Below, in pieces: positions 2,464 to 48,548 of a stretch of DNA of 64,000 nucleotides (the first letter of the stretch is position 1; each line of letters starts with the position of its first letter). Source of the stretch: Candidatus Anammoximicrobium sp. (lineage in GTDB: Bacteria > Planctomycetota > Planctomycetia > Pirellulales > Pirellulaceae); NCBI GenBank assembly GCA_012515235.1, contig JAAYYU010000075.1, positions 40,509-104,508 on the forward strand, given 5' to 3'. The position numbers were made by a program, and so were the translations under genes. The notes under the pieces are model-generated. The model was not told the DNA's origin, did no database searches, and worked only from the letters and a program-made list of their open reading frames with translations.

Positions 2464-2483
2464 GGGGCGCCCCTCGCCGCAAC

Positions 2484-4748: not shown

Positions 4749-4817
4749 TCCCAATCCTTTCTCGTCACGGCGACTGCCTCGAACTCCCGCCCGGAAGGGC
4801 GCACTCCAAGCGCCTTC

Positions 4818-17282: not shown

Positions 17283-17295
17283 GGCCGTGAGAGCC

Positions 17296-19893: not shown

Positions 19894-22800
19894 ATGGCGA
19901 GCGGGTCTTCTTCTCTGGTGTGCGAAGGCTGCGGTCAGCCGGTGCAGGCGGGAGACCGCTTCTGCCGCAATTGTGGTCGGCCTCAGGCGCGGCCGCCAAG
20001 GCGGACGTCGGCCTCGGCGGCGTTCGTCCGGTATCTTCAGCAGGCCCGCCGGATCGCCGATGGCGAATCGGATTCGAAGCCGGAGCCGCCGAAATCTGTC
20101 CGCTTCGACGACGTGGCGGGGTTGGGCGATCTGAAACAGACGCTCCGGGAAATCGCGATGGTGGCGCAGGGCCGGGGACCGAAGGGGTTGCGCCCGTGGC
20201 GGGCCGTGATGCTGTTCGGGCCGCCCGGCACCGGGAAGACACTGATCGCTCGCGCGCTGGCGGGAGAGTTGGGCTGGTACTTCCGCGCCGCCTCCGGCAG
20301 CGATTTCAAATCGAAGTGGTACGGCGAATCGGAACAGAACATTCACAACCTGTTCGAGGACGCCCGCCAGCAAGCGCCCAGCGTGGTGTTTTGGGACGAG
20401 GTGGACAACGTTTCCGGGCAACGGACGGGAAACGCCGGCGACTCGGTCCTGACCCAACTGCTGCAGGAAATCGAGGGCTTCACGGTGTCGTCGAGTCCGG
20501 TGCTGCTGATGGCAGCCACCAATTTGCCCTGGGCGCTGGACGAAGCGTTTGTGTCGCGGATGGAGCGGCGGATTCTGGTTCCGTTGCCCGAGGCGGCAGG
20601 CCGCGAGGAAATCCTCCGCCTGTACACGCGCGAGTTTCCCTTGGAGGACGGCATGGACTTTGCCGATCTGGCGCAGCGGAGCGAGTGGCGTTCCGGACGC
20701 GAACTGGAACGGATTTGCCAGGACGCGGCCATCGAAGTCTGGCGCGAGTCCGCCTACGATCCGGAACGTGTCCGTCCCGTCGGCGCCCGCGATTTCCACC
20801 AGGCCATCGATCGCAACCCGCCGCTGACCACACGCGACTTGGTGCGCACGCACGAGCAGTGGGCGGAACGCTACGGAACCGACGGACGGAAGCCTGCGGA
20901 CGACGGTGCCGGACCCGTCCGCCGAATGGCGGCCCCGCCGAGCGCCGCGGGTCTGTCCGCTGTCGGGTCAAGCGGCGGCACGCTTGCCGAATGGACGGTC
21001 CCGGCCGGAGTTCTCCGCGAGCTGGTGGTGTCGTCGTTCGATCAGGCCCTGGAGTGCACTGCGGGCCTCTTGGCCGGCGCGGAGGGAACCGTCCGCCAGT
21101 TTGTTCCCGCAGCCCGCTTGGCCAAAGCGCCCAGCGACTCCCGGGGGATCGCGTTGATCCAGTACTTGGCCGGCCAGCCGTTGATGGACCGGTTCACCTT
21201 GCCGTTCGACCTCTGGCAACTGCCGGAGGACTTGGTCCGGGAGGGGCAGGTGTTCCTGCAGATGCTGTGCGTCCCCGGCGTCTTTTGCCAGGACGAAGTG
21301 CCGAGGGAACTGACTCGCGGTCCGCGCGAGCAGTGGCAGTTGACGGACCAGGACGTGTGGATGGCGTTGTTTGACTGCCCGCTGTCGGGCAAATCGGTTC
21401 GACCGCGTCTGCAGCGCCACCGGGAGTGGCTCCAACGCGTGCTGCCGCAACTGGCGGGACAGGAACAAGCAGAGATCCGGGAAATGCTGGAACGTCTGGA
21501 CCGCGTGCTCGCCCAGTTGCTCGACGGATCGCTTTCTCCGTTGGTTTGCGTGGCCTTCTTGCTTGGATCAGCCGGGCCGCTGTCCTGGCGGATCGGACCC
21601 GTCGGAACGTCCAGGACCCGCGTCCCAGGGCGGCCGCTGTCCGCTGCCCCGCTGGCGCGTGCCCTCGCGGGCGGCGACTGGGCGGCGAGGTGGTGGCGTC
21701 AAGATCCGGTGGCGCTGCACGGGTTCGTCACGGCCGTTGCGCGAGCGGCTGACCGTCGCCCCGCGCCCGCACCGCCGCCGGAGCGAGAAGTCCCGTTCCG
21801 CCCGCCGGCGGCGGCGCCGCCGCCCCCCGCCAGCTCCAAACCGGAAGGCCTGGACGAACGGATCCGAAGTCTGGAGTCACGGTTGCAGCAGCGCCTGAAC
21901 CGGCTCAGCGGGCAGGCGGCCAGCACGGGACCGCAACCGGCCGGACCGGCGGACAGCCGGTTCGAACGTCCCGCTCTGATCTCGGGTTCCCCGCCGCGCG
22001 AACGGATGGCAAGTCAAGCGGCTGGTCTGAGCGGGCTGTCCACCGCGCCGGCCTTCCGGCCGCTTGCCGGCTCAGGCCAAGACATCGAATTGTCGCTGTT
22101 TCCGGCCGAGTGGACGGGCCTCGTGCGGGCGTACCGCCAACAGCCGGAATTGCCCCAGGTTTCGTTGCGAACCTCCGGCATCCACCGCTTGGAGGACCTC
22201 CATCTGCGGCTGGAGATGGCCGACTTCAGCCATCCTCACGAAGAACTCATCCCGCGACTGGACCGACAGACCCCGGTCACCTTGACCGACGTGGCGCTGC
22301 CGCCGAAATTGGCTGCCTACCGGCAAGTATCCGAACGCGTGAGGGGGCGTCTTACCGCCACACTGACCGACGCGACAGGGCGTTTGCTGCAGGTCGCGCG
22401 TGCCGAGATCCCCGTGTTGGCCTACAACGAGTGTCCGATCTCGGCCGAAGAGGGCGAGTTGATTGCCTGTTTCGTCCAACCGAACGATCCCGGCGTGATC
22501 GAGGTCACGAAGTTGGCCGCGGCCCACGCGCGACAGCTGAACGGTTCGGCTGCCCTGTGTGGTTATCAACAACCGGATCCGCAGTTCATCGACAACATGG
22601 TCCAGGCCGTCTACTTGGCCGTGCAGAAGGATCTCCAGGTCACGTACATCAACCCGCCGCCCAGTTTCGAGGGCCGGCGGATGCTCCAGCGTTTGCGCAC
22701 GCCGGGCCAGATCGTGTTGCGGGAGCGTCAAGCCACTTGCTTCGACTTGGCGCTGTTGTTTGCCGCCTGCCTGGAGCACATCGGCCTGAATCCGTTGGTG

Positions 22801-23073
22801 TTCCTGATCCGTGGGCATGCGTTTTTCGGCTATTTTGTTTCGGAGAGCAATTACCCCTTGGCCGTCACCGACCGCTGGCCTCAGATCGACGAGTCGCTGC
22901 GACGCGGACAGTTGGTAGCCATCAATTCCACCAGTTTTTGCGAGGGCTGCGATTACGCTCAAAGCCGGGAGCACGGCGAACGCTGTCTGGCCGACGAGTC
23001 TCAGTTCGAGTTCGCCATTGACGTGGTCCAGGCGCGTCGGCGGCAATTGCTGCCCCTGCCGTTCGAAAGCTAG
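19894..23073 (+). CDS. Zinc-ribbon AAA+ ATPase with transglutaminase-like C-terminal domain
   Basis: A 1059-residue multidomain protein. A zinc ribbon (CEGCGQPVQAG.RFCRNCG) lies at about 10-28. An AAA+ ATPase follows at about 70-310 with Walker A GPPGTGKT (about 109-116), Walker B VVFWDEVD (about 165-172) and MAATNLP sensor 1; the WDEVD form is of the FtsH/p97/katanin-like group. The middle (about 370-640) is unrecognised and a Pro-rich linker lies near 620-740. The C-terminus has TCFDLALLFAACLEHIGLNP (Cys about 949) and RGHAFFGYF (His about 975), then an Asp about 993. This is the layout of transglutaminase-like domains found next to conflict-type helicases. ATG 19894 is supported by a GGGAGG box. 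It is the first gene of the cassette and likely its NTP-driven core. Confidence 0.85.
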   Translation: MASGSSSLVCEGCGQPVQAGDRFCRNCGRPQARPPRRTSASAAFVRYLQQARRIADGESDSKPEPPKSVRFDDVAGLGDLKQTLREIAMVAQGRGPKGLRPWRAVMLFGPPGTGKTLIARALAGELGWYFRAASGSDFKSKWYGESEQNIHNLFEDARQQAPSVVFWDEVDNVSGQRTGNAGDSVLTQLLQEIEGFTVSSSPVLLMAATNLPWALDEAFVSRMERRILVPLPEAAGREEILRLYTREFPLEDGMDFADLAQRSEWRSGRELERICQDAAIEVWRESAYDPERVRPVGARDFHQAIDRNPPLTTRDLVRTHEQWAERYGTDGRKPADDGAGPVRRMAAPPSAAGLSAVGSSGGTLAEWTVPAGVLRELVVSSFDQALECTAGLLAGAEGTVRQFVPAARLAKAPSDSRGIALIQYLAGQPLMDRFTLPFDLWQLPEDLVREGQVFLQMLCVPGVFCQDEVPRELTRGPREQWQLTDQDVWMALFDCPLSGKSVRPRLQRHREWLQRVLPQLAGQEQAEIREMLERLDRVLAQLLDGSLSPLVCVAFLLGSAGPLSWRIGPVGTSRTRVPGRPLSAAPLARALAGGDWAARWWRQDPVALHGFVTAVARAADRRPAPAPPPEREVPFRPPAAAPPPPASSKPEGLDERIRSLESRLQQRLNRLSGQAASTGPQPAGPADSRFERPALISGSPPRERMASQAAGLSGLSTAPAFRPLAGSGQDIELSLFPAEWTGLVRAYRQQPELPQVSLRTSGIHRLEDLHLRLEMADFSHPHEELIPRLDRQTPVTLTDVALPPKLAAYRQVSERVRGRLTATLTDATGRLLQVARAEIPVLAYNECPISAEEGELIACFVQPNDPGVIEVTKLAAAHARQLNGSAALCGYQQPDPQFIDNMVQAVYLAVQKDLQVTYINPPPSFEGRRMLQRLRTPGQIVLRERQATCFDLALLFAACLEHIGLNPLVFLIRGHAFFGYFVSESNYPLAVTDRWPQIDESLRRGQLVAINSTSFCEGCDYAQSREHGERCLADESQFEFAIDVVQARRRQLLPLPFES

Positions 23074-23087
23074 AAAGGGAGACTCCG

Positions 23088-25478
23088 ATGCCCGATCCCA
23101 GTGCGACTCAGAAATGTCCCCAATGCCAAAGCCCCCTCCACGCCGGGGACCGGTTCTGCGGCGTGTGTGGCGCGACGCTGGCCACCGGCCAGATTCCCTG
23201 CCCGAGCTGCGGACTAGACGTGCCGGCTAACAGCCAGTTTTGCGGACACTGTGGCCGGCCGATCCACGCTCCGAGTCCGGAAATTCGCCGGCATCGCTGG
23301 TGGCGTTCGCCGGAAGAGGTCGCGGTCCGCTTCGACGCGGCCAACTTGCCGGACCTGATCCACGGTTTCAAGGGCGTCGAGAAGCAGGGCTGGGTCGACT
23401 GGGGCAAGGAGAAAGCGGCTCGCCTGGGATTGCTGGAGACAGGCTTTGTGATCGAGGAGGGGACGCTGGCCGTGCTGTTCCAACATGGCGTGGCGGAAGT
23501 CTTCGGGCCGGGAAGCTACGGGGGCGGCGACCTGAACAACCGTCTGGCCCAGGTCCTGGCTGGCGAACCGATGGTGCTGGCCATGATGGACGGCGGTCCG
23601 GTCGAACTGCCCCTGGCGATCGATGACCTGCTGACGGCCGAATCGGTCAAGGTCGCGGTCCACTGCCGTCTCGTCGTCCAGATCAAGGACCCCGTGGTCT
23701 TTCAGACGGTGTGTGTCAAGGGTGTGAAGCGTGTGACTCGCCTGGAACTGGCCGAGCGGCTGAAGCCGGAAGTCCGGCTGGCCCTGCTGGACGGCCTCCG
23801 CGCGACACCGGCCAAATCGCTGCGCTCGGGCACCGAGTTACAGACGCAGTTGGAACAGCGGTTGGACGAGGATCTGCGGGCCGCTCTGCAGCCGTGGGGA
23901 CTCCGGCTCACCGACGTCCGCGGACTGACGGTCCGTGGAGAAGTCTTGGAGCGGTTCACGGGCCAGCAAGGCCAACTGTACGAGCGCGGCGCGCAACTGG
24001 ACTTCGAGATCCTGTCGGCAGCCCTCGATCAGCGGGAGTTGCGCCAGCAGGCGGCCCACAACCTGGAACGGGAGCGGGCGGGACACGAGTCGGACCGGGA
24101 CGCATTCCGCGAACAGGCCGCACACGAATTGGAGATGGAGCGTCTGCAGCAGGAACGCGAACAGTTGCGGCAGCAGGACGCGGTGGCGCACGCCGGACGC
24201 CTGGATCAGATCGACCGGCAATTGTCGGACCTCGAGGCTCGCCGGGAAGTCGCGGACCATCAGCGTCAGACCGTGACGCGGGTCGAAAAGACGGCCGTGG
24301 ATCTGGAAGGCGAGTTCCAGGAATCGGCGTTGGAAGTCGGGCAGGCGGAAAAACTGGCAGACCTGTACCGCCGGGCCGAGACCGTCAAGCTGGATCGGCT
24401 GCAAACCGAGGAAGACGTCGACAAGGTGGTCGCGGAACTGAACAAGAACAAAGCCCTGCGGGACGACGACGTCGAAACGCTGAAGCAGGGCCTGTTGGAC
24501 CGCCGCGAAGATCGCGAACTGGCCCGCAGCTATCTGCTCAAGAAGATCTCGCTGGAGCAGGAGTTGGAGCAGCAGCGGATCCGCTTGCAGGCCGGGCAGG
24601 AAATGGACGCCGCGGGGGTGGAGCACGAGTTGGCGTTGCGCCGCCGGCAATTCGAGTCGGCTCAAGCCGAGGAGCGCACCTTGCACGAACGGTCGGTGGC
24701 GGAGGAGCGAAATCGGATCAAATTGGCGGAGGAGGCGGATCAAGCGGACTTGCGGACCCTGGAGCAAATGCGCCGGCTGAACCAGTCCGACGCGGAACAC
24801 GCCCAGCGGATGGAGGCGGAACGCCTGAAGGCCCGCAGCGGCGCGTCGGTCGCCGCGCTGTTGAGCTTGATGCGCGAGCAGGGTGGCGCGGCCTCTGCCG
24901 AGGTCGATCAGACGCTGCGCGAACTGGCCCGCACCGAGCAGTTCAAGGGACTCAGCACCGACGCCATCCTGGCGATGCAAGCCGGCGAGTCCCCCGAGGT
25001 GGCCAAAATCTTCCAGGCGCGGGCCACCGCCGGGGGCTACGAGGAACTGATGCAGGCCCGCCTGGAAGAATCGCAAAAGGCCGTCGAGCAGGAACGTCGG
25101 CACTCCCAGGAGATGCGCGAGGTGTTCGAGAAGCACGCCCACGTCATGGGCGACTCCTCGGCCCAAGCGATGCAGCGGATCACCGACATCGCCCAAAGCG
25201 TGGCCGCCAGCAGCCGCGGCGAAACGGTGGTTGTCAATCCTCCGCCGGGCTCGTTCGCCGCCGGGGCGACCGTGGTCGGCCGGCAGCCGGGAAGCCCCGC
25301 GGAAGCCCTCGTCGCCTGCCCCGCCTGCCGTGCCATGCAGCGGAGTTCCGCGACGTTCTGCGACCACTGCGGCGCCCGCCTCAAGCCTCTGCCCGACGGC
25401 CGGCCTTGCGCCAACTGCGGAGCGCCGGTGCCGCCGGGCAATCGTTTTTGCCCCCAGTGTGGCGCGACGCTGGGGTGA
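23088..25478 (+). CDS. SPFH/coiled-coil protein with zinc ribbons at both ends
   Basis: A 796-residue protein with ribosome site AAAGGGAG. Two zinc ribbons open it (CPQCQ...CGVCG and CPSCG...CGHCG, about residues 10-60) and two close it (CPACR...CDHCG and CANCG...CPQCG, about 740-794). Residues about 95-300 (EEGTLAVLFQHGVAEVFGPG) resemble an SPFH/band-7 domain. Residues about 310-680 form a long charged coiled coil rich in Glu, Arg and Gln. A Pro/Gly linker precedes the last ribbons. No transmembrane helix is evident. Such proteins scaffold or oligomerise at membranes. It starts 14 nt after the ATPase gene, so the two are in one operon. The ribbons are probably the shared docking feature of the cassette. 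Confidence 0.75.
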   Translation: MPDPSATQKCPQCQSPLHAGDRFCGVCGATLATGQIPCPSCGLDVPANSQFCGHCGRPIHAPSPEIRRHRWWRSPEEVAVRFDAANLPDLIHGFKGVEKQGWVDWGKEKAARLGLLETGFVIEEGTLAVLFQHGVAEVFGPGSYGGGDLNNRLAQVLAGEPMVLAMMDGGPVELPLAIDDLLTAESVKVAVHCRLVVQIKDPVVFQTVCVKGVKRVTRLELAERLKPEVRLALLDGLRATPAKSLRSGTELQTQLEQRLDEDLRAALQPWGLRLTDVRGLTVRGEVLERFTGQQGQLYERGAQLDFEILSAALDQRELRQQAAHNLERERAGHESDRDAFREQAAHELEMERLQQEREQLRQQDAVAHAGRLDQIDRQLSDLEARREVADHQRQTVTRVEKTAVDLEGEFQESALEVGQAEKLADLYRRAETVKLDRLQTEEDVDKVVAELNKNKALRDDDVETLKQGLLDRREDRELARSYLLKKISLEQELEQQRIRLQAGQEMDAAGVEHELALRRRQFESAQAEERTLHERSVAEERNRIKLAEEADQADLRTLEQMRRLNQSDAEHAQRMEAERLKARSGASVAALLSLMREQGGAASAEVDQTLRELARTEQFKGLSTDAILAMQAGESPEVAKIFQARATAGGYEELMQARLEESQKAVEQERRHSQEMREVFEKHAHVMGDSSAQAMQRITDIAQSVAASSRGETVVVNPPPGSFAAGATVVGRQPGSPAEALVACPACRAMQRSSATFCDHCGARLKPLPDGRPCANCGAPVPPGNRFCPQCGATLG

Positions 25479-25797
25479 GTAGGACAAATTCACCGGGTGG
25501 CGCCGACGGCACCGCCCGTGGTGTCGAGTTTCGAGCCAACGTACACTCTCCTAAGCCGGGTCTTGATCTCCGCTCTTTCGCGCGTTAGCCTCCCTACCTA
25601 CGAAGATGTAGGCTCGAAGATATGCCTGAGTGGCTTCCACTCTGACAGGCGCGCACGACGAGCGGAAGCGGAATTTTGGCGGTCCTAGAACGAGGGAACA
25701 ACCGTTGCTTTTCAAACGTGATCCTGGGGCCTTGCGACGGAGGCCTTGGATCGCGATTCGAGCGTGGGTTTTTCCTTTGTGGAAGGTGTGTGGTGAC
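25479..25797. other. Intergenic region inside the cassette
   Basis: About 320 bases without a supported gene. An open frame continues upstream of the next gene to 25630, but its residues look unlike protein and lack a ribosome site. A secondary promoter could lie here; no convincing -35/-10 pair was found. Confidence 0.4.
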
Positions 25798-28263
25798 ATG
25801 GCCAACGACTTCCAGGAAGCAGACCCTCATCGCGGCGCCGGGACCTTGAACGAGGCCTCCTCGGATCGGCGATGCGGACAGTGCGGAGCCTCCGTCCGGG
25901 AGGGGACCAGGTTCTGCACGAAGTGCGGCAATCCGCTGGACGGCGCCGCATCCGCCGAGTGCCTTCCGGCCCGCGGGTCTGCCGTGTCGCCGGGCTCCGT
26001 GTGTGTGGAAGCGCCCCCGGCTGAAGGTTCGGCGAGCGTCCGGCAAGCGCCGCAGCGCGTCGTCGCGGGCGGGAACGTGACCTTCGTGCAAAACACCCAA
26101 ACCGTCGCCGGTCCGCGCCGGCTTGTCTGTGCGATCTGCGGGACGTCCCAGATTGAAGATGCGTGTTTCAAATGCCGCCGTTGCGGACGGTGGATCTGCC
26201 AGAGTCACCAGGACGTGGTCCACCTGACCTGTTGGGAATGCGCCCAGGTCTTGGAGGCGCAGAGCGTCCCGAACGCCGCGGCCAGGGGCCAGACGGCGGT
26301 TCCAGGCCAGGCATTGGCCAGTTCCGTCTCGTCGCAGGTTGCAGCCGCGGTGCGCCCCGTAGCGCGCCCCACGCAGCGTGTGTCGCCGCCTGCCGGCCCC
26401 GCCGTCATTTCGACCACGGCCACGTTGAGTATTCGCTCGGACCCGGCGGACGCAGAGGTCCTTGTCGACTCGCGGTTGGTAGGCCACACGCCGCTGGACT
26501 ACCCTGTGGACTTGGGCGTCCTGCACCAACGTCAGGTGGAGGTATTGATCCGCAAAGAACGCCATCAGAGCCAGGCGGCTCTGATTCACATGCGCCGCGG
26601 CGAGGTCAGCCAATGGCACGGGGTTGTGTTGACGCAGTCCACCGCGGCCGGCCTTCCCGATCCGACCGAGGTAGAGGTCAAGGACGTCCGCGTCGAGCCG
26701 CTGGAAGTCGAAGTCCAGCCGTGCGTCCAACCGTCGCCGCCGATCAAGGGCTTGCCTCCGCTGCCTGCGGAAATGCGGGAAATGGCCGGAGTGCTGGAGG
26801 GGCTCAGGCGGGCCATCACCAGGCTGCGGGACGGGACGCATCCGAGCCTGAAAAAGGCTCAGGCGGCCGTGCGTCAAGCGCAAGAACAACATCAGCAACT
26901 CCGCCGCGACTTGGAAGAGCACGGGCGCAGCTTGCCCAGCCACGTCCGCCGCCGGCTCCTCGACGAGGCGACTCGGAATCCCGCTTGCTCCGTCTCGCAG
27001 TTGGCTGCCCTCGCGCCGCAACTGTCCACGGACCTGGTGCTCCGCTGGCTGTGTGCGTTCCGCAACTCCCAGAACGCCAACCGCGTTGCGGACCAGGCGC
27101 AGGCGGCTTACGAACAAGCCCGGCAGGCCAAGATCGCCGAACTGCAAGAGCAAGCGAACGACATCGAACGTGATCTTCTGCCCCGTTTGGAACAGGATTT
27201 CACTCGAATTGCCCTGGCGTTGTTTGAGAAGACAGACGTCTCGTCGGGCTTTCCGGTGCAGGCCTGGCTGAAATTGGAGCCGCTGCTGGCTCAACGCTCC
27301 TACCCTTGGGACAACCGGACGCTGGTGATCAAGGCGGAAGCCCTGTTTCGGGACTGGCCCGATCATCGGGCGTGGCGCAAAGCGTGCAGAGCAAACACGG
27401 TCGAGGCCCTTCAAGAGTACTTGGCGGCCATGCCCCACGGCCGACACGCGGCCGAGGCGCGGGCACGCTGGGAACAGACGCGTTCGGCAGCGCCGGGTCA
27501 GCCTGACCGGAATCAGACGGCGGATTCCTGGTCCAGCGGCGTCGGGATGGTCTTCCAGCTGATCCCTGCCGGCCAATTCGAAATGGGAGCCTCCCCCGGC
27601 GACCGAACGGCTTCGGCCAACGAGAAGCCGGCGGAGACGGTCGTCATCGAGCGTCCGTTCTGGGCCGCTGCGTTTCCCCTGACCAACGCCATGCTCCGGC
27701 GGTTTTTGGAGGGCGACGATACCGTGGCAGGACGAGCCGCTCAACTGCGCGGGGATCGTTCATTTGCCCGTGCCGTTCGGGCGGGTAGTGTTCCTGACGA
27801 CTTGCCCGCCGTGGGGATCAATGCCTCGGACGCCGAAATCCTCTGTGAATGGCTTCGGGGTTTGGACGGCCGGCCCTATCGCTTGCCGACGGAAGCCGAG
27901 TGGGAATTCATGGCGCGCGCGGAGTCCACCGGAGCGTACTGGTGGGCGGACGAAGACGATCCTCAAAAGCGGGCCGTGGTTGGCAGCAGCGGTCCGGCGG
28001 CGGCAGATCCCCAGCGAGCGAATCCCTGGGGCCTCATCGACGTGCTGGGCAACGTGTGGGAGTGGACGAGCAGCACGTATGAACCGCTCGCTTCCGGGGC
28101 GGCGAGCCGGGCGGCCGGCCCGCTCAGCAGCGAAGCCCGCGTGGTGCGCGGCGGGAGTTGGCGGGTCAAAACCGCAAGCGATATCCGGGTCTTTCGGAGG
28201 CGTTCGATGTCGATGCGCACGCGGGCGGATGACTTGGGAGTACGTCTCGTGTGCGACGTGTAG
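25798..28263 (+). CDS. Zinc-ribbon, PEGA and formylglycine-generating-enzyme-like (SUMF1) protein
   Basis: An 821-residue protein, ATG 25798 preceded by GGAAGG. A zinc ribbon (CGQCGASVREG.RFCTKCG) lies at about 26-44. A second Cys/His cluster (CAICG, CFKCRRCGRWICQSH, CWECA, about 110-150) resembles a treble clef. A PEGA domain (TLSIRSDPADAEVLVDSRLVGHTPL) lies at about 203-265. A helical middle with coiled coils follows. The C-terminal part, about 585-820, is FGE-sulfatase-like: GMVFQLIPAGQFEMGA, RLPTEAEWEFMARA, NVWEWTSS and VRGGSWRV. The catalytic Cys pair of true formylglycine enzymes is not evident, so this is more likely a binding or scaffold version. It belongs to the six zinc-ribbon genes of the cassette. 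Confidence 0.8.
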   Translation: MANDFQEADPHRGAGTLNEASSDRRCGQCGASVREGTRFCTKCGNPLDGAASAECLPARGSAVSPGSVCVEAPPAEGSASVRQAPQRVVAGGNVTFVQNTQTVAGPRRLVCAICGTSQIEDACFKCRRCGRWICQSHQDVVHLTCWECAQVLEAQSVPNAAARGQTAVPGQALASSVSSQVAAAVRPVARPTQRVSPPAGPAVISTTATLSIRSDPADAEVLVDSRLVGHTPLDYPVDLGVLHQRQVEVLIRKERHQSQAALIHMRRGEVSQWHGVVLTQSTAAGLPDPTEVEVKDVRVEPLEVEVQPCVQPSPPIKGLPPLPAEMREMAGVLEGLRRAITRLRDGTHPSLKKAQAAVRQAQEQHQQLRRDLEEHGRSLPSHVRRRLLDEATRNPACSVSQLAALAPQLSTDLVLRWLCAFRNSQNANRVADQAQAAYEQARQAKIAELQEQANDIERDLLPRLEQDFTRIALALFEKTDVSSGFPVQAWLKLEPLLAQRSYPWDNRTLVIKAEALFRDWPDHRAWRKACRANTVEALQEYLAAMPHGRHAAEARARWEQTRSAAPGQPDRNQTADSWSSGVGMVFQLIPAGQFEMGASPGDRTASANEKPAETVVIERPFWAAAFPLTNAMLRRFLEGDDTVAGRAAQLRGDRSFARAVRAGSVPDDLPAVGINASDAEILCEWLRGLDGRPYRLPTEAEWEFMARAESTGAYWWADEDDPQKRAVVGSSGPAAADPQRANPWGLIDVLGNVWEWTSSTYEPLASGAASRAAGPLSSEARVVRGGSWRVKTASDIRVFRRRSMSMRTRADDLGVRLVCDV

Positions 28264-28288
28264 ACCAGTACGGATTGGGGAAGCATTT

Positions 28289-30103
28289 ATGGCCGCCTGT
28301 TTTGCGTGCGAAAGCCCGATTCCGGACGGGGTGAGCCAATGTCCCGTTTGCGGACTGCAGCTGGCAGTGTGCCGCAATCCGGACTGTGGCCAGTGTTATC
28401 CGGCCGAGGCGAGCTTCTGTCCGTTCTGCGGCGAGTCCGTCCAGGACGCTGCGCCTGCCCCGGTGGAACCGGCCGCGGTGGAGGGCCCAACAGGGACCGG
28501 CGTCGTGGGTTCGCCCGTACCCTTCGTGGCCGAAAACGGGCCTTCGCCCGAAGTCTTCGACCCGGCGACCGGTTCGCCGCCGGGTGCCGAGCCAGCCGGG
28601 AAGCCCGCCAGTCCGGGCACCTTCGATCAGATGCTGGCCCTGTTCCAGGAGGGCGAAGATGCCGGCCCGGGCCCGGCGGCAGCCAGTGCGGCGGCAGATC
28701 CGTACGCGCCGCCAGCCGCCGCGTCGGAGAAGGCGACCCTCGTGGGTGGGCTGCCCGCGGCCTTTCCCGCAGATCCTTCTCCGGGCGTGCCGATGATCGG
28801 CCTCCCCGGAACCGGTGTTGCCGACAGAGGGCTTGCCGCGATGGCGATGCCCGGCCTGGGTTTGCCCGGCCTGGGCGTGCCGACGGCCGCGATGAGCACG
28901 GCGCCGGTGACGTTGGAGGTCGAAACATCCGACAAGTATCGTCGCCATCAACAGGGGTTGCTGCGTCTGCGGGTGCGTGGAGACGGTTTGTCGTCCGACG
29001 CTTTGGTGGACGTGGGCATCAGTTCGGCTCTGTTCTCCGGCCCTACGGACTTCCACGTGCGTTTGGGCTTCAGCCAGACGCACGAGTTCGACGCCCTGCG
29101 GTTTGTGCCCCACGTTGCGGGAGCCGAACACGTGCGGATTTCGCTGACATTGAAGACTCCGGCCAGCGTGCCGTTAGGCCGGTGGTCGGCCGCCTGGCTG
29201 ATGCAGATCGAGGACGTGGAGAAGCAGGAGATTCACGCGGGCGGCGACGTGTTTATTGTGGGCGGAGTCCCTGCGGCGTCGCCCTCGCTGGGCCTGGACG
29301 GTTTCGGCGCGATGGGGGGCTGGCAACCGCTGCCGCTGCAAGCGGACCCCCACTTCAATCGGCGGCTGACCAACGCCTGCCCGGAAGCGGCTCTTGGCAC
29401 GCCGCCGCCGCTGGATCCGGGATCGGTTTGGCCCGCGGGAGCCCGCGCGCAGGCGGCGGTGTGTGTCGACGATCTCCAGACCGGGCTTTCCCAGGCCCTG
29501 GCCGTGGTCTGCGGCAATTCAGCCAACCTGGGCCGCGGCGGCGACCCGGCCGTGTCGTGGTGGCTGCAACCGTCGCCGTTCGATGCCCACCAGCACGGCC
29601 GGCTGTCGCGCCGGCACGTGTCCCTGGAACTTCGCGACGGCCGAGCCTGGGGCAGCGACTGGAGCACCAACGGCACGTGGCTGAACGGCGAGCGAGTCGC
29701 GAAATCCGAGTTGCAGCTGCTGGCCGACGAAGACCGCTTGGAGCCGGCGCAGGTCGTCCCGTTCCACGTGACGCTGTTGGCCCGCGAGGGGCAAGTCCAC
29801 GCGATCTGGCTGCGCCGTCAGGACGCGCTCCGCGAGCAGTTAAGCTACCTGCTGACCGACGGCCAGACTCCGCTCCCCGTGCTGGTGCCCGGACAGTCCG
29901 CGCCCGTCGCGTGGCTGGCCTGGCGGCGCACGCCTAACCAAGGGCCGGAACTGATGGCTTGTGCAGCGGAGGCCGGGAGGTGGGAACCGCTGGGGCCTCA
30001 GCAGCAGCGCGTCCTGGCGGACCGCTACCGCCTGTCGTGGCAACTCTTGCTTGCCCCGGTCGATCAGGCGACGTACCTGGGAGCCATTTGTGCCCAGACT
30101 TAA
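28289..30103 (+). CDS. Zinc-ribbon FHA-domain protein
   Basis: A 604-residue protein. The start MAACFACESPIPDG.SQCPVCG (about residues 1-22) and CGQCYPAEASFCPFCG (about 33-48) give two zinc ribbons. A long Pro/Ala/Gly linker (about 55-205) precedes a beta-rich region (about 210-325). An FHA domain at about 400-475 shows NLGRGGD, RLSRRHVSLEL and STNGTWLNGERV, the Gly-Arg, Ser-x-x-His and Asn-Gly residues needed to bind phosphothreonine. It would read out phosphorylation by the kinase two genes downstream. ATG 28289 lies 25 nt after the previous stop; an upstream in-frame extension lies inside that gene and is not credible. No enzyme domain is seen. Confidence 0.82.
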   Translation: MAACFACESPIPDGVSQCPVCGLQLAVCRNPDCGQCYPAEASFCPFCGESVQDAAPAPVEPAAVEGPTGTGVVGSPVPFVAENGPSPEVFDPATGSPPGAEPAGKPASPGTFDQMLALFQEGEDAGPGPAAASAAADPYAPPAAASEKATLVGGLPAAFPADPSPGVPMIGLPGTGVADRGLAAMAMPGLGLPGLGVPTAAMSTAPVTLEVETSDKYRRHQQGLLRLRVRGDGLSSDALVDVGISSALFSGPTDFHVRLGFSQTHEFDALRFVPHVAGAEHVRISLTLKTPASVPLGRWSAAWLMQIEDVEKQEIHAGGDVFIVGGVPAASPSLGLDGFGAMGGWQPLPLQADPHFNRRLTNACPEAALGTPPPLDPGSVWPAGARAQAAVCVDDLQTGLSQALAVVCGNSANLGRGGDPAVSWWLQPSPFDAHQHGRLSRRHVSLELRDGRAWGSDWSTNGTWLNGERVAKSELQLLADEDRLEPAQVVPFHVTLLAREGQVHAIWLRRQDALREQLSYLLTDGQTPLPVLVPGQSAPVAWLAWRRTPNQGPELMACAAEAGRWEPLGPQQQRVLADRYRLSWQLLLAPVDQATYLGAICAQT

Positions 30104-30121
30104 TCCCGTGAGGAATTCGCC

Positions 30122-32074
30122 ATGCAAAAGATCCAATGCCCGAAGTGCGGGAAAGAGACCTTCGACGGTAAGTATTGCATGCATTGTCAGGCCGACCTGC
30201 ATCCCGAACAGGTCGCAGGACGGAAGAAGGTCACGTGCCCGTCCTGCGGCAAGGAGACGTTCGAAGCCCGCTACTGCCTGTACTGCCGGGCAGATATGCA
30301 CAAGGACATCGTCCGACAGGAAAAAGTCATTTTGAAGGAAGACAAGGCAGGAATCCTCTTGAAGGCGCGGGCGATCCACAACGAGCAGCAAGCCGTGCCC
30401 ATCGTCCAGATCTCGGTGGCGGATCAGTTGCCGAACGGAACACTGCCCAACGTCAAGAAGCTGGTCGTCCAGCCGGGGACGTTCACTTTTGTGGTCTCGC
30501 AAATGCACAAGCTGGTGTATTTCAAGCCGGGGGAGTACGACGCCTCCCAACTGGCCCTGGGCGGCGAGGTGAAACCCAGCCTCGGCGGCCCCGCGGAAAT
30601 CTGTCCCGTCTTTCTTTGTACCATCAGCCAGCGTCCGATCGTCACGACGGTCTTCCTGCCGGACTGGGACGCGCTGTTCCGAGAGAGCGGCGACAGCGCC
30701 GTCGCCGAGCAAGGCAACTGGGATGTCGAGGGCGCCATTCAGCAGTTGAGCCTGCGGACTGCGGACAATCTTTTGGGCGGGGCCAGCGCCCAAATGGTCC
30801 TCCGGTGCATGAATCCCGCCCAGTTGCTCGACATGTTCATCCAGCGAAAACTAAGTCAGCTGGACCTCGCGGAACGCGGCCAACTGGGGCTCTTGTCGGA
30901 CGAACAACAGGCCGCCCTTCCCGACGAGCAACGCCTGGCGTTGGGAATCCCCAAAACGAAGCCCAAGCAGCGGTACGAAGGTCTGTTTGGGAAATACATC
31001 GGCGTGCCCGTCAAGGCCCTCTGGCAAACGGTCTTCGGCGTTCAGGTCGAATCGTCGCCGCTGCCGCAGACGGTGAGCATCACGATGCTGGACTTCTATC
31101 GGCAAATCCGCATGGAATTCGCCGCGGCGATCATCGAGGCCATCCGCAACGACACGGCGGAGCAGTTGTACAACACGGTCGAACTCCGCGAACGCATCGC
31201 CGAAGACATCCAGCGCGTGATGTCGCAATCGTTCGAGATGTACGGGCTGAAAATCGAACGCGTCTCCGCCTTCCGCTTCATCTGTCCAAAGTATGAAGAA
31301 GTGCTGAAGCGCCGCGGCGATATTGCGCTCGACCGCGAGCAACTTACGGATCGAAAAAAGGAGATGGACATTGGCCGCGAACAGCGGCGGATGGCGGTAG
31401 AAGAAGCCCGTGACGTGTCCACGGTCGAGACCGAGTTGCAGACGCAACTCGCCTCGGACGATGCGCTGCTGGAGCGGCACAAGCTCAAAGAAGCCCGCGA
31501 AACCGAACACGACCGGGACCTGTTGCGGGCGGAACAACTGCAGCGTCAGCTGGCGCTGGACGCCGAGGCGCATCGGGCCAAGCTGGAGATGGAAGAGCAG
31601 CAGCACGAACTGGAGATGCGCAAGGAGCGGCGGCGGTTGGAGTTGCAGGCCGAAAAAATGCAACTGGCGCTGGGCTTTCAGCAGCAGGCCCTGGAGATGC
31701 AGAACCAGCAGCAGAACTTGCTCCTGGAACGCCGCATCAAGATGCTCGAACAGTATGCCAGACTCCCCAAAGAATCCATCCTCACCATCGCCCTGGCCGA
31801 GAATCCCCAATTGGCGGCAGCCTACTCGGCTTCCGTGCAGGCCCAGAGTCAGCAGGAGCAACTCCAGATGCAGGAAAAGTTCCGTTCGGAGTTGTCTCAA
31901 GCCTATGCCGGCAACAACGCTCAATTCACCCGGTTGCTGCAAGAGGCGGTCAAGCAATGGGGCCAGTACCAGGCCGCCAAGGTGCAGGAAAGAGGCAGAG
32001 CGCAACAAGTGATCAACGTCGGCGCCCAGGGCAACCTGCCGCCGCCAAGCGGTTCTCTCCCGGAAGAGAAATGA
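30122..32074 (+). CDS. Second zinc-ribbon SPFH-like/coiled-coil protein
   Basis: A 650-residue protein with GAGGAA 8 nt before ATG 30122. Two tandem zinc ribbons (CPKCGKETFDGKYCMHC and CPSCGKETFEARYCLYC) occupy residues about 6-60. The body to about 420 includes MEFAAAIIEAIRN...GLKIERVSAFRF, which has the pattern of the second half of an SPFH domain. Residues about 425-570 form a Glu/Gln/Arg-rich coiled coil, with a Gln-rich tail. It is distantly parallel in design to the other SPFH-like cassette protein but not close in sequence. It is packed tightly between the FHA and kinase genes. Function unknown; oligomeric membrane scaffold is the best guess. Confidence 0.7.
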   Translation: MQKIQCPKCGKETFDGKYCMHCQADLHPEQVAGRKKVTCPSCGKETFEARYCLYCRADMHKDIVRQEKVILKEDKAGILLKARAIHNEQQAVPIVQISVADQLPNGTLPNVKKLVVQPGTFTFVVSQMHKLVYFKPGEYDASQLALGGEVKPSLGGPAEICPVFLCTISQRPIVTTVFLPDWDALFRESGDSAVAEQGNWDVEGAIQQLSLRTADNLLGGASAQMVLRCMNPAQLLDMFIQRKLSQLDLAERGQLGLLSDEQQAALPDEQRLALGIPKTKPKQRYEGLFGKYIGVPVKALWQTVFGVQVESSPLPQTVSITMLDFYRQIRMEFAAAIIEAIRNDTAEQLYNTVELRERIAEDIQRVMSQSFEMYGLKIERVSAFRFICPKYEEVLKRRGDIALDREQLTDRKKEMDIGREQRRMAVEEARDVSTVETELQTQLASDDALLERHKLKEARETEHDRDLLRAEQLQRQLALDAEAHRAKLEMEEQQHELEMRKERRRLELQAEKMQLALGFQQQALEMQNQQQNLLLERRIKMLEQYARLPKESILTIALAENPQLAAAYSASVQAQSQQEQLQMQEKFRSELSQAYAGNNAQFTRLLQEAVKQWGQYQAAKVQERGRAQQVINVGAQGNLPPPSGSLPEEK

Positions 32075-32118
32075 AGTCCGCCCACCTTGAACGGTTCAAC
32101 CTTCTGAGGGCCTGAGTC

Positions 32119-34155
32119 ATGAACGAGCGCACGATCAGCGACGCCGACCAAGGAGTCCCCCGCACGGCGACCCCGCCGCCTCAAGACAACTACGGAGCGA
32201 CCTGCGCGGACGCCGGCACGGGAAGCACGGTCCCGCTGAGCAACCGCCGCAGCGTGGCGGCCCGCGACGTGTATCAAGTCGTACATCTGATCGGCAAGGG
32301 GGGGATGGGATCGGTGAGCCTCGCGCAAGACGTGCGCCTCCGCCGCTGGGTGGCCCTGAAGCGGCTGTCCGAACAATACGCCCACGACTCCCGGCTGTTG
32401 GCGCGGTTCCACACCGAAGCCCAATCGGTCGCCGCCCTGTCGCACTTTCATATTGTCCAGGTGTACGCCATGGACGAGGACGACGAGGGGCCTTATATCG
32501 CCATGGAGTACGTGGCGGGGCCGGGCAAGGTCGCCCGCGAAGGATGGCCCGGCAACCTGCCGCCTCCCCCGATGGACCTGGAAGACATGGTCAAAACCCA
32601 GGGCGTCCTGAAGGTCGCAGAAGCGGCCAAACTTGGCATCAAGCTGTGCAGCGCCGTCGGCTACGCCCACAAGCGCGGCGTGATCCACCGCGATATCAAA
32701 CCGGCCAACATCCTGCTGAACGAGGAAGGCGAACCCAAGCTGGCCGACTTCGGCCTGGCGCGGCAAGTCAACGCGCAGCACGAAGGCATGACCATGGCCG
32801 GCGCCCAACTGTTGACGTTGGGCTACGGCGCGCCCGAGCAAGAAACCGACGCCTCGCGGGTCGACGAACGGGCGGACCTGTATGCCTTGGGCGCTACGCT
32901 GTGGTTCGCCATCACCGGTCAAAACCCGCGGTTTTTCCGCGAGAGCGAAGTTCCAGGTCCCTTGCGGCCGATCCTGTCCAAGGCGCTGGAAAAAGACCGG
33001 GAAAAGCGGTTCCAGTCGGCTGCGGAGTTCGAGCAGGCGTTGAGCAAGTTGGATCCGCGGGCCCGGTTCGTGCCCCAGGCCACGGCCATCGACGGCCTGC
33101 TGCCGGGCTGCTGCCCGAAGTGCGGCCACCAGCACGACTTGGGCGACAAGGCGAGCGCGAAACGCAAGTTCTGCGAGAGTTGCGGCACGGCGCTTCTGGA
33201 ACCCTGCTTGAAATGCGGGGCCGAAAACGGCGTGTGGGCGAAGTTCTGCGGGCCTTGCGGCGCGGACCTGAACACCACCCTGAACGCCGAAATCGAGCGA
33301 CTCCAGGCGGAACGCGATCGCTTCGAGGTGTGCCACAAGTCGTACCAGTTCGAGGAGGCGATCGAGATCCTGACGCCGATGGCCGCCGTGAAACATCCGC
33401 GCTTGAAGGTGTTCCACGACTGGGCGGCCGAGTTCCTCCCCCGCGTGCGCGCGGAATTCGAGGCGGCCCAACAACAGCGGGACGAAGCGCTGCAGAAAGC
33501 CCAATCACTGGCGACGATGTGCGAGTACCGCGATGTGTTTCCCGTGCTCGAAAACGTGCCCAAGCCGCTGTGGACGCCCACGATGGAAAAACTGCACCGC
33601 GTGTCGCGGGAATTGTACACGCGGGCCAGCCAGCTGCGCAAGGAAGTCGCGGACCAAATCGCCGCCAAGGACTACGACACGCTCAAAGCCAAAGTCCTGG
33701 AGCTGCTGAAGATCAATCCCAATGACGCGGAAGTGCAAAAACTGCTGCAGCAACTCGAAAAACGCGAGGAGAGACTGCGCGAAGCTTCGTGGCAGGCGGT
33801 CCGCAAACACCCGACCGTGCGAAACTGCCAGGAATACATCGCCAACTATCCCGCCGGACCCCACGTGTCTCAGGTCCAGGCGCTGCTTGCCCCGTTGTTG
33901 CGGGACTCGCTGGTCGACCGGCCCCGAGATGCGACGGTGCGCCAGCAATATGTGGCGATCCGCACGCCCCAACTGCAGAAACTGGATGAAAAACTAGCGC
34001 GGCAGGGCTGCCAGATTGTCGACGCGATCGGCGGCGCGCTGGCAGGCGCCGTGCTGGGCGCGCTGGTCGGGGGCGTCGGCGGCTGGATCGGCGGGATCCT
34101 CGGCGGAGTGATCGCCGGAGTGGCGCTGGGGATCGTGTTAGAAAACAAAGCGTGA
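32119..34155 (+). CDS. Serine/threonine kinase with zinc ribbons, coiled coil and glycine-zipper tail
   Basis: A 678-residue Hanks-type kinase. The kinase domain at about 53-315 has IGKGGMGSVSL, WVALKRL, HRDIKPANILL and DFGLARQ, with LGYGAPEQE in the activation segment. Two zinc ribbons follow (CPKCGHQ...CESCG and CLKCGAE...CGPCG, about 332-390). A helical, TPR-like segment (about 395-600) comes next. The C-terminus at about 630-672 is hydrophobic and glycine-zippered (GGALAGAVLGALVGGVGGW), suited to membrane insertion or pore-like packing. It is the likely writer for the FHA reader two genes upstream. Its stop is 11 nt before the start of the small membrane protein. Confidence 0.9.
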   Translation: MNERTISDADQGVPRTATPPPQDNYGATCADAGTGSTVPLSNRRSVAARDVYQVVHLIGKGGMGSVSLAQDVRLRRWVALKRLSEQYAHDSRLLARFHTEAQSVAALSHFHIVQVYAMDEDDEGPYIAMEYVAGPGKVAREGWPGNLPPPPMDLEDMVKTQGVLKVAEAAKLGIKLCSAVGYAHKRGVIHRDIKPANILLNEEGEPKLADFGLARQVNAQHEGMTMAGAQLLTLGYGAPEQETDASRVDERADLYALGATLWFAITGQNPRFFRESEVPGPLRPILSKALEKDREKRFQSAAEFEQALSKLDPRARFVPQATAIDGLLPGCCPKCGHQHDLGDKASAKRKFCESCGTALLEPCLKCGAENGVWAKFCGPCGADLNTTLNAEIERLQAERDRFEVCHKSYQFEEAIEILTPMAAVKHPRLKVFHDWAAEFLPRVRAEFEAAQQQRDEALQKAQSLATMCEYRDVFPVLENVPKPLWTPTMEKLHRVSRELYTRASQLRKEVADQIAAKDYDTLKAKVLELLKINPNDAEVQKLLQQLEKREERLREASWQAVRKHPTVRNCQEYIANYPAGPHVSQVQALLAPLLRDSLVDRPRDATVRQQYVAIRTPQLQKLDEKLARQGCQIVDAIGGALAGAVLGALVGGVGGWIGGILGGVIAGVALGIVLENKA

Positions 34156-34166
34156 GGAGACAAAAA

Positions 34167-34445
34167 ATGGCACAAGAAGACCAAGGCTGCGCCAACGCTG
34201 GTTGCGGCTGTGTGGCGTTGATCGTGGTGGCCGGACTCCTGCTGGCTGGGATTGAGGCTTACGCGGCCGCCTTCGACGGGACCCGATTGATCATCGGCGC
34301 CTTTCTCGGCAGCCTGGCCGGCGCAGGCGGTGCGGTGCTCGTGCCGTTCTTCGGACAGGCACACCGGAAGAAGGCCGAAATCGGACCGCTTCGCTGGCAG
34401 GATTGCATTAACAGCGCCGCAAAGCTGCGCGAGAAATACCTGTAG
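34167..34445 (+). CDS. Small two-TM protein ending the zinc-ribbon cassette
   Basis: A 92-residue protein, ATG 34167 preceded by GAGGAG 7 nt away. A GTG at 34152 overlapping the kinase stop is possible but less likely. Residues about 10-32 (CGCVALIVVAGLLLAGIEAY) and about 42-62 (IIGAFLGSLAGAGGAVLVPFF) are transmembrane helices, the second glycine-rich like the tail of the kinase. The C-terminus is polar. No zinc ribbon and no known family. It probably pairs with the kinase tail in the membrane. Confidence 0.75.
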   Translation: MAQEDQGCANAGCGCVALIVVAGLLLAGIEAYAAAFDGTRLIIGAFLGSLAGAGGAVLVPFFGQAHRKKAEIGPLRWQDCINSAAKLREKYL

Positions 34446-34667: not shown

Positions 34668-34873
34668 AGGTGGCGAGGCAACCGATTTCGAGGAGATACC
34701 ACCCGCTGGACGCCCACACGGTTTTCGGACCCAGACGCTGCGGGAGGTTGACGTCGGTTGCATCGCGCCGGCCGTCGGGTAGAATCAGGGTACGGCTGGC
34801 GTTGACCGAGGGCGGAGCGTTGTGACAGGGGCGCCGGTCGGCTATGTCCTCACCAGCGGCGAAGGGGGGGCTC

Positions 34874-36337
34874 ATGTCCAAGGCAACGCGTCAGATCTTC
34901 AAGCGGATCGTGCTACACAACAAGCTGTTGGCCGAGCCGGAGGTGGACTCGCTGCTGGCCGAAGTGGATGATCCGGAGCACGCCATCCAGCGTCTGGTCG
35001 AACGCCACACGCTCAGCGCCAAGGCGGCGGAACAGTTCTTGGCGGTTTACAAGAAGCAGGCCGACAAACTGATCTTGGAGACACTGGGGGCGTTGGACGA
35101 GTTGGATGCCAAACCGGCCGCACCTGGGCCGGAGCCCGCGCCGGCAGCCGCGAAGAAGGAGCCGAAAAAGGAACCGCCGCCGGAGGCGAAGCTGGAAGTG
35201 GAGCCGGCGGTCGAGTTGGAAGTGGAGCCGGCGGTCGAGGGACCGCAGGGAGCGAAACCGCTGCCCCAGGCCGGCGCCGAACTTGTGCTCCAATTGCTGC
35301 GCGAGGCCCGCGGTCTGGGCGCCTCGGACTTGCACCTCAAGGCCGGCATGCGTCCCACCGTCCGCCTGCACGGCGCGCTGCAGGAGTTGCCGCATCCCGA
35401 ACTCGAGCCGGCGGCTTGTGAAAAGTCCCTGCTGGCGCTCCTCGACGACCAGCAGCGGGCCCAGTTTGACACGGACCAGGATCTCGATTTCTGCTACGAC
35501 GGCGGCCGCGGCATGGGACGCTTCCGCACCAACTACCTCCGCGAGCACCGCGGCCTTAACGCCATCTTCCGCCTGATTCCCGATCACGTGCCCAGTTTCG
35601 ACGAACTGCAGTTGCCGCCGCAGGTCAAACGGTTCACCGAGTACCGGGTCGGCATCGTGCTGGTCACCGGGCCCAAGGGCAGCGGCAAGACCACCACGCT
35701 GGCCGCCATGGTCGATATGATCAATTCCTCGCGCGCCGAGCACATCATTACCGTCGAGGACCCCATCGAGTTCGTCCAGCCGTGCAAGAAGGGGCACGTC
35801 AACCAGCGGCAGGTCGGGATCCACACCAAGTCGTTCAGCAACGCGCTGCGGTCGGCGCTCCGCGAAGCCCCGGACGTGATCATGGTCGGCGAGATGCGCG
35901 ACTTGGAGACCACCTCCTTGGCCATCACGGCCGCCGAGACCGGGCACCTGGTTCTGGCCACGCTGCACACGCCGGACGCCGTCCGCACGATCGGCCGCGT
36001 GCTGGACGTGTTCCCGCCCAAGGAACAGCCGCAGGTTCGTGCCATGCTCTCCGAATCGCTCCGCGGCATCGTCTCGCAACTGCTCGTGCCCGGCGCCGAC
36101 GGCCAGTCGATGGTGCTGGCTACTGAGATCCTGGTCAACACGCAAGCCATCGGCCACCTGATCCGGGAAGAAAAAGTCCATCAGATCCGCGGCCTGATGC
36201 AGACCGGCAAGCAGTACGGCATGGTGCTGATGGAGGAATCGCTGATCCGCCTGGCCAAGGAAGGCAAGATCACGAAAGAGACCGCGCTGGCCTGGGCCGA
36301 GGACGTCAAAATGGTCCAGCGCGGACTGCTGGATTAA
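34874..36337 (+). CDS. PilT-family twitching ATPase-like protein
   Basis: A 487-residue secretion ATPase of the GspE/PilT superfamily. Walker A GPKGSGKTTT, Asp box VEDPIEF, Walker B VIMVGEMRD and His box LVLATLHT are all intact. IGHLIREEKVHQI near the end matches the retraction-type PilT motif. Residues 1-60 form an extra helical domain unlike PilT, followed by a Pro/Ala/Glu linker (about 70-135) that contains a 24-nt tandem repeat. No pilin or pilC gene is in the window, so a role in pilus retraction is assumed from family only. ATG 34874 follows a G-rich ribosome site. Confidence 0.88.
   Translation: MSKATRQIFKRIVLHNKLLAEPEVDSLLAEVDDPEHAIQRLVERHTLSAKAAEQFLAVYKKQADKLILETLGALDELDAKPAAPGPEPAPAAAKKEPKKEPPPEAKLEVEPAVELEVEPAVEGPQGAKPLPQAGAELVLQLLREARGLGASDLHLKAGMRPTVRLHGALQELPHPELEPAACEKSLLALLDDQQRAQFDTDQDLDFCYDGGRGMGRFRTNYLREHRGLNAIFRLIPDHVPSFDELQLPPQVKRFTEYRVGIVLVTGPKGSGKTTTLAAMVDMINSSRAEHIITVEDPIEFVQPCKKGHVNQRQVGIHTKSFSNALRSALREAPDVIMVGEMRDLETTSLAITAAETGHLVLATLHTPDAVRTIGRVLDVFPPKEQPQVRAMLSESLRGIVSQLLVPGADGQSMVLATEILVNTQAIGHLIREEKVHQIRGLMQTGKQYGMVLMEESLIRLAKEGKITKETALAWAEDVKMVQRGLLD
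35193..35239 (+). repeat. 24-nt tandem duplication in the PilT linker
   Basis: TGGAAGTGGAGCCGGCGGTC (plus GAG) recurs with a period of 24 nt at 35193-35215 and 35217-35239, encoding a repeated Leu-Glu-Val-Glu-Pro-Ala-Val-Glu. In frame, inside the acidic linker. Confidence 0.85.
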
Positions 36338-48387: not shown

Positions 48388-48548
48388 GGCGGCTCCCGGA
48401 AACCAAACAGGATTGTGCGAAAGGAGGCACAGGCCTCCTTTTGTGCGAAGCACCTCACGGGCCGTTCCGGCAAGAGGTTCCTGTGGCCTTTTCACGCAGC
48501 CGGAGACCGCAGTGTCTTGCCGGCCCTGCGCCGGGCAAGGGAGTCGCT

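What the first reader, a model, noticed from the sequence alone, without database searches (positions are those of the whole stretch)
19894..34445. Seven-gene zinc-ribbon cassette as a candidate undescribed signalling or conflict system
Seven consecutive plus-strand genes encode: AAA+ with a transglutaminase-like tail; SPFH/coiled coil; PEGA plus FGE-like; FHA; second SPFH-like/coiled coil; Hanks kinase; two-TM protein. Six of them carry CxxC zinc ribbons (about a dozen in all). A kinase writer and an FHA reader sit in one set with an ATPase core and membrane scaffolds. I know of AAA/kinase/FGE-rich conflict systems in multicellular-like bacteria, but not this exact assembly. The shared ribbons suggest a common docking code.
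Basis: partly seen in the sequence, partly recalled or inferred. Interest (0 to 1): 0.9.

Follow-up and report, generated by a model that had tools for sequence, protein, structure and literature searches.

The report
Kinase-tail, FHA, SPFH signalling cassette
A rare bacterial gene cassette keeps four genes in the same order in two planctomycetes of different families, and likely encodes a membrane-tethered complex in which a protein kinase would tag its own tail so that a partner protein can dock, possibly as part of a cell-defence system.

Summary
In detail: seven co-directional genes at 19894-34445, six carrying 14 four-cysteine zinc ribbons, against none in 28 other gene models of the window. 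It is not chance clustering: FGE-FHA-SPFH-kinase recurs in the same order, 33-44% identical, in Planctomycetales bacterium 10988. Six of 12 database SPFH relatives sit on contigs whose length equals that of an FHA relative's contig, and the two families co-diverge (rho 0.86). Relatives of the AAA-transglutaminase and first SPFH genes are absent from the 37 kb examined there, so the unit is a four-gene core plus an add-on pair. The second genome puts a TIR domain where the window has ribbon-PEGA. The FHA domain is Rad53-FHA1-like; the kinase tail carries conserved TxxD motifs, a canonical FHA ligand type, and its DxYGATxxD motif occurs in 1 of 40 kinase tails read from this genome. I read it as a self-phosphorylating kinase docking an FHA adaptor on an SPFH scaffold, with exchangeable outputs, plausibly defensive. 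Defence is untested; a ribbon 'docking code' is unsupported. The core is very rare: 2 of 397 class genomes.

The parts
19894..23073 (+). AAA-TG: N-terminal zinc ribbon, Cdc48-class AAA ATPase, middle region without a Pfam domain, C-terminal transglutaminase-like domain (1059 aa)
20206..20586 (+). AAA domain; Walker A GPPGTGKT, Walker B DE, SRMERR arginine-finger candidate
22144..23064 (+). transglutaminase-like domain related to the N-terminal part of anti-phage ProA and to DUF4011 proteins; Cys in ATCFDLA, His in GHAF
23088..25478 (+). first SPFH-like coiled-coil protein with four zinc ribbons (two at each end)
   Evidence: distant relative two genes before an FHA gene in G051
25798..28263 (+). 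zinc ribbons, PEGA, helical region, FGE-family protein
   Evidence: counterpart in G431 carries TIR instead
27559..28251 (+). FGE domain; only one cysteine (683) inside it and one just after (819), so no C-terminal Cys pair
28289..30103 (+). two zinc ribbons, Ig-like domain, FHA domain, beta-rich C-terminus (604 aa)
29531..29740 (+). FHA domain, Rad53-FHA1-like, with invariant R-L-S-R and His
30122..32074 (+). second SPFH protein: two zinc ribbons, SPFH fold, long coiled coil (650 aa)
32119..34155 (+). Ser/Thr kinase with N-terminal TxxD tail, double zinc ribbon, helical region, glycine-rich hydrophobic C-terminus
32131..32142 (+). TISD motif in kinase tail (predicted FHA ligand)
32185..32211 (+). 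DNYGATCAD motif in kinase tail (predicted FHA ligand)
34009..34146 (+). glycine-rich hydrophobic segment of the kinase (predicted membrane anchor)
34152..34445 (+). small protein with two predicted TM helices; overlaps the kinase stop; no BLAST counterpart in the 37 kb of G431

Best explanation
Four of the seven genes (FGE, FHA, SPFH, kinase) keep the same order in a second planctomycete, and likely act as one membrane-tethered complex in which the kinase is predicted to phosphorylate TxxD threonines in its own N-terminal tail that the FHA protein would then bind. Shown: gene order, co-divergence, intact kinase motifs, conserved FHA ligand-pocket residues, tail motifs in conserved sequence, and an SPFH fold in the predicted model. 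Inferred: the kinase sits on the membrane by its glycine-rich C-terminal segment; the SPFH protein oligomerises into a ring or cage there, as flotillin and HflK/C do; the FHA adaptor links phosphorylated kinase to the SPFH scaffold and to the FGE protein through its ribbons and Ig-like domain. The FGE protein is the exchangeable sensor/output end (TIR in one genome, ribbon-PEGA in the other). In the window a Cdc48-type AAA unfoldase carrying a transglutaminase-like protease has been added upstream with its own SPFH-like partner and would remodel or cut targets. The most likely purpose is a stress- or phage-triggered conflict response.
For: Same four-gene order in G431 = CP043547.1, BLAST identities 44, 36, 33 and 40% (kinase 42%). 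Six of 12 SPFH relatives share contig length and source with FHA relatives; co-divergence Spearman 0.86 over eight loci, reached by 2 of 5000 permutations. Kinase G-loop, VALK, HRD, DFG and APE present. Tail TxxD: 2 in the window, 3 in G431, in aligned context (score 77 against a maximum of 56 in 2000 shuffles); the DxYGATxxD pattern in 1 of 40 own-genome kinase tails, the cassette's; the 39 other tails, last 110 residues, hold 16 TxxD in 3733 aa, 1 of them with 2 or more. FHA R416, R438, L439, S440, R441, H443, N461, G462 in 16 of 16 rows; closest solved relative by sequence Rad53 FHA1; pTxxD named as the canonical FHA motif, bound by Rad53 FHA1 (PMC6375734, passages). SPFH fold. TIR-FGE in G431. 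Transglutaminase-like domain near that of anti-phage-named ProA. Patchy: 2 of 397 class, 2 of 396 order genomes for the SPFH, 1 of 241 family genomes for full-length FHA.
Against: No phosphorylation, binding or phage data. Within the window alone two TxxD are not rare for the tail's composition (shuffle P 0.09); the strength lies in G431 (P 0.002) and in conservation. Taking whole tails instead of the last 110 residues, 3 of the 39 other kinases have two or more TxxD, in tails of 108, 400 and 666 residues. Only two kinases of this family were seen. No FHA or SPFH relative was found in viral contigs or (FHA only) plasmids. PADLOC matches are confined to single domains: AAA to IetA and TRIP13, kinase to PD-T4-6 and others, the G431 TIR to TIR models. 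AAA-TG and the first SPFH gene are not linked to the core elsewhere. Neither SPFH protein has a hydrophobic membrane segment of its own. The recalled role of Rad53 Arg83 in reading the +3 Asp was looked for in PMC3146460 and not found.
Confidence: 0.5

Rival explanations
1. Envelope-stress or membrane protein quality-control module: an SPFH scaffold with a Cdc48-type unfoldase and protease, like HflK/C-FtsH, tuned by phosphorylation; no role in defence.
For: SPFH fold with best matches among HflK/C, flotillin and prohibitin; AAA of the Cdc48 class; two further Band_7 genes and a PspA gene in the same window.
Against: A housekeeping module would be expected in more than 2 of 397 class genomes; the 37 kb around the G431 core has a TIR domain and no relative of the AAA-TG gene.
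Confidence: 0.25
2. Member of the multi-gene conflict systems of Kaur et al. 2020, with FGE as effector and TIR, kinase and caspase-type parts.
For: FGS and TIR domains recur there as effectors, planctomycetes are among the hosts, and FHA domains occur sporadically (PMC7159879, passages).
Against: None of their defining hubs (MoxR-vWA, DO-GTPase/GAP1) is among the Pfam hits of the seven proteins or ten neighbours; SPFH occurs once in that paper's main text, in the reference list.
Confidence: 0.15
3. The FGE protein is a diversity-generating-retroelement target, so the cassette is a hypervariable sensor.
For: FGE family; the genome has 9 reverse-transcriptase matches. One RT locus (L015) has a 47-base, 74% identical stretch (E 1.3e-4).
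Against: No template-repeat-like copy of the FGE C-terminus in the assembly: by E-value the best non-self match is 25 bases at 92%, and the longest listed is about 50 bases at 74%.
Confidence: 0.03
4. Chance clustering of common planctomycete domains.
For: Kinase domains are common in this genome (63 matches).
Against: Conserved order in G431, shared contig lengths and co-divergence.
Confidence: 0.04

Closest known systems
NTP-dependent conflict systems of Kaur et al. 2020 (vWA-MoxR ternary and GTPase-centric systems; PMC7159879, passages read)
   Same: Multi-gene sets, planctomycetes included, with FGE (FGS), TIR, peptidase and zinc-ribbon parts around a constant core; swappable effectors
   Different: Core here is FHA-SPFH-kinase; no MoxR-vWA or DO-GTPase/GAP1 hub among the Pfam hits of the seven proteins
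Archaeal ESCRT loci of the Halo_FHA and Meth_adaptin types (PMC10936438, passages read)
   Same: A Vps4 AAA, FHA, Ser/Thr kinase, and SPFH with coiled coil and zinc ribbon occur in them
   Different: Those parts are spread over different archaeal groups; no ESCRT-III-type Pfam hit among the seven proteins; no transglutaminase or FGE in the passages read
Rad53 FHA1 with pTxxD ligands (PMC6375734, passages read; PDB 1g6g)
   Same: Aligned RLS..H and STNGTWLNG stretches; TxxD ligand type
   Different: Bacterial; the partner is predicted to be the kinase's own tail; FHA carried with ribbons and an Ig-like domain
Anti-phage ProA (NCBIfam NF058533) and DUF4011 proteins
   Same: Transglutaminase-like domain
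   Different: Here fused to a Cdc48-type AAA, not to the helicase-type domains of DUF4011 proteins; no description of ProA as a defence protein seen in the listings (one listed review was not opened)
HflK/C-FtsH and flotillin assemblies
   Same: SPFH fold with long coiled coil; an AAA protease partner in HflK/C-FtsH
   Different: Zinc ribbons stand where the N-terminal membrane part would be; kinase and FHA included

Membership tests
Kaur et al. conflict systems (vWA-MoxR or GTPase-centric) | MoxR-vWA pair or DO-GTPase/GAP1 in the gene set | tested here: not met
   None among Pfam hits of the seven proteins or of ten neighbours. G431 has a MoxR-like and a DUF58-like gene upstream, judged by eye from their first 60 residues only
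Kaur et al. conflict systems (vWA-MoxR or GTPase-centric) | Exchangeable effector domain next to a constant core | tested here: met
   TIR against ribbon-PEGA on the FGE protein; two loci only
SPFH superfamily (second SPFH protein) | SPFH/Band 7 fold followed by coiled coil | tested here: met
SPFH superfamily (first SPFH protein) | Band 7 sequence signature | tested here: inconclusive
   E 0.005, below the gathering score; no model made; its G051 relative has no Pfam hit
Phosphothreonine-binding FHA domain | Conserved Arg, SxxH, N-G | tested here: met
   16 of 16 rows for R416, S440, H443, N461, G462
Phosphothreonine-binding FHA domain | Binds phosphothreonine | not testable with these tools
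   needs protein
Active Hanks-type kinase | G-loop, VAIK Lys, HRD, DFG, APE | tested here: met
Formylglycine-generating enzyme | C-terminal cysteine pair (recalled) | tested here: not met
   Cysteines 683 and 819 only in the region 588-821
Known anti-phage system in PADLOC | System-specific set of proteins | tested here: not met
   Matches confined to the AAA domain of AAA-TG and the kinase domain; none for the other five proteins
DGR target | Template repeat in the genome | tested here: not met
   assembly incomplete (94.9%)

The most novel reading that the evidence does not exclude
A bacterial phospho-immune relay: a membrane kinase writes pTxxD marks on its own tail, a Rad53-like FHA adaptor reads them and assembles an SPFH cage, and the cage arms a swappable output, a TIR enzyme in one lineage and a Cdc48-transglutaminase 'unfold-and-cut' machine in another.
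Probability: 0.2. Interest if true: 0.85.

Novelty: new variant of a known kind. Interest (0 to 1): 0.62.

Why it matters
If true, bacteria would use a writer-reader phospho-switch of the checkpoint-kinase type to build a membrane cage and trigger an immune-like output. It gives a concrete short motif (DxYGATxAD) and a partner domain that can be tested in a tube, and it links SPFH membrane scaffolds to TIR and transglutaminase-type effectors.

Tried and rejected
Diversity-generating retroelement: no template repeat. Mobile element, phage or plasmid origin: no FHA or SPFH relative confirmed in viral contigs (two peptide patterns each), no FHA match in plasmids. Ribbon 'docking code': ribbons match generic models and their number varies between relatives, so no code was pursued. 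The transglutaminase-like domain matches in 39 of 294 phylum genomes, own included; 30 of the 41 matches lie in open frames of 1700-2500 aa, which were not scanned for domains. Of the 24 proteins, 9 have an AAA domain (own included), 11 have PF13195, 1 has PF12770 and 3 have none. Genome-contig scans: the first found nothing, the second only CP043547.1. Family-wide FHA search: own genome plus two 53-position FHA-only matches. Family of G431: one genome held, G431 itself. Paper searches for ProA gave nothing usable. VIA-align rows for the FHA model cover residues 200-311 for the most part, so its C-terminus stays unassigned. The genome samples overlap and are not independent. Each protein search scored only the roughly 8000 candidates sharing most words.

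Full report
WHAT IS THERE. The window lies in a 9.67 Mb, 417-contig assembly (94.9% complete, 7.6% contamination) of the same order as Planctomycetales bacterium 10988. Seven plus-strand genes run from 19894 to 34445: AAA-TG 19894-23073, first SPFH 23088-25478, ribbon-PEGA-FGE 25798-28263, FHA 28289-30103, second SPFH 30122-32074, kinase 32119-34155, two-TM 34152-34445. Gaps are 14, 319, 25, 18 and 44 bases, then an overlap of 4. The one wide gap splits the set into a pair and a block of five. Fourteen four-cysteine ribbons lie in six proteins; 28 other gene models of the window have none (five short or end-cut models left out).

THE CONSERVED CORE. An FHA search of 60 relatives found a full-length relative (38%) in G431, which is Planctomycetales bacterium 10988, CP043547.1. 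The 37 kb around it holds FGE, FHA, SPFH and kinase, in this order and on one strand, with BLAST identities of 44, 36, 33 and 40% (42% for the kinase). AAA-TG and first-SPFH queries hit only ribbons there. The G431 FGE protein starts with a TIR domain (5.6e-22). In the 5.8-billion-protein set the second SPFH has 12 relatives and FHA 14, besides the window's own. That these are the same contigs is inferred from length and source; the contigs were not read. Over eight loci (window, six pairs, G431; unpaired rows left out) the two families' identities correlate (rho 0.86; 2 of 5000 permutations as high). Species history alone could also give this, so it shows joint inheritance and not interaction.

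DISTRIBUTION. Second SPFH: 1 of 392 phylum, 2 of 396 order, 2 of 397 class genomes. Full-length FHA: 1 of 241 family genomes. First SPFH: own plus one weak match in 199 phylum genomes. That match, in G051 (24% over 207 residues, E 4e-16; no Pfam hit), lies two genes before a protein with an FHA domain (1e-8) and an N-terminal cysteine cluster, so a pairing of this SPFH-like type with FHA recurs elsewhere. Its contig starts just upstream, so a kinase there cannot be judged.

THE SWITCH. The cassette kinase has the catalytic motifs and a 51-residue tail with TISD and DNYGATCAD. The G431 tail, counted from an inner start, has TFSD, DDYGATFAD and DEYGATFAD. Tail alignment scores 77 against a maximum of 56 in 2000 shuffles. 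In 40 kinase tails of this genome the DxYGATxxD pattern is found once, here. The other 39 tails (last 110 residues) hold 16 TxxD in 3733 residues, 1 of them with two or more; over whole tails 3 of 39 have two or more. Against: in the window tail alone two TxxD arise in 9% of shuffles; in G431 three arise in 0.2%. The FHA domain's nearest solved relative by sequence is Rad53 FHA1, with RLS..H and STNGTWLNG aligned; R438, L439, S440, R441 and H443 are invariant in 16 of 16 rows. pTxxD is described as the canonical FHA motif, bound by Rad53 FHA1 (PMC6375734, passages). That the Arg before L-S selects the +3 Asp in Rad53 is recalled; PMC3146460 (passages) has no mention of Arg83 or R83. Hence the prediction that the FHA protein docks on the autophosphorylated tail.

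WHAT IT IS FOR. Leads to defence: TIR exchange, the transglutaminase-like domain of an anti-phage-named family, extreme patchiness, and a caspase-fold gene with His and Cys in place just upstream. Leads away: only domain-level PADLOC matches, no relative found in viral contigs or plasmids. The defence reading is inference.

KNOWN SYSTEMS. Of the papers that hold most of the domain words, Kaur et al. 2020 (passages) and the ESCRT survey (passages) share parts but, in the passages I read, not this set. The searches cover only the held open-access library.

Noticed in passing
window 14984-19155: ECF-type sigma factor, kinase-DUF4384 and a caspase-fold protein (His137 and a DCC motif, five predicted hydrophobic segments) just upstream on the same strand; may form a linked module.
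   Followed up: partly
window 36563-38559: Two adjacent Band_7/SPFH genes after a T2SSE-type ATPase gene (34844-36337), downstream of the cassette.
   Followed up: no
window 48596-49453: PspA/IM30 family gene beside a kinase-WD40 gene (45001-48495); an SPFH protein is needed to localise PspA in another bacterium (PMC10936438, passage).
   Followed up: no
L048 (G051:C93) 165-4757: SPFH-like coiled-coil gene, FlgO-like gene (weak) and a gene with an FHA domain and an N-terminal cysteine cluster in another member of the phylum.
   Followed up: partly
proteins P0044-P0047, P0051, P0052: Shorter AAA-transglutaminase-like proteins (740-777 aa), one in Chitinilyticum aquatile; neighbourhoods not read. 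P0062 combines the domain with PF12770 (CHAT, name recalled).
   Followed up: no
window 25798-28263 and 32119-34155: The FGE and kinase proteins share a short motif of the type 'YLxxxPxGxHxxxA'; by eye.
   Followed up: no
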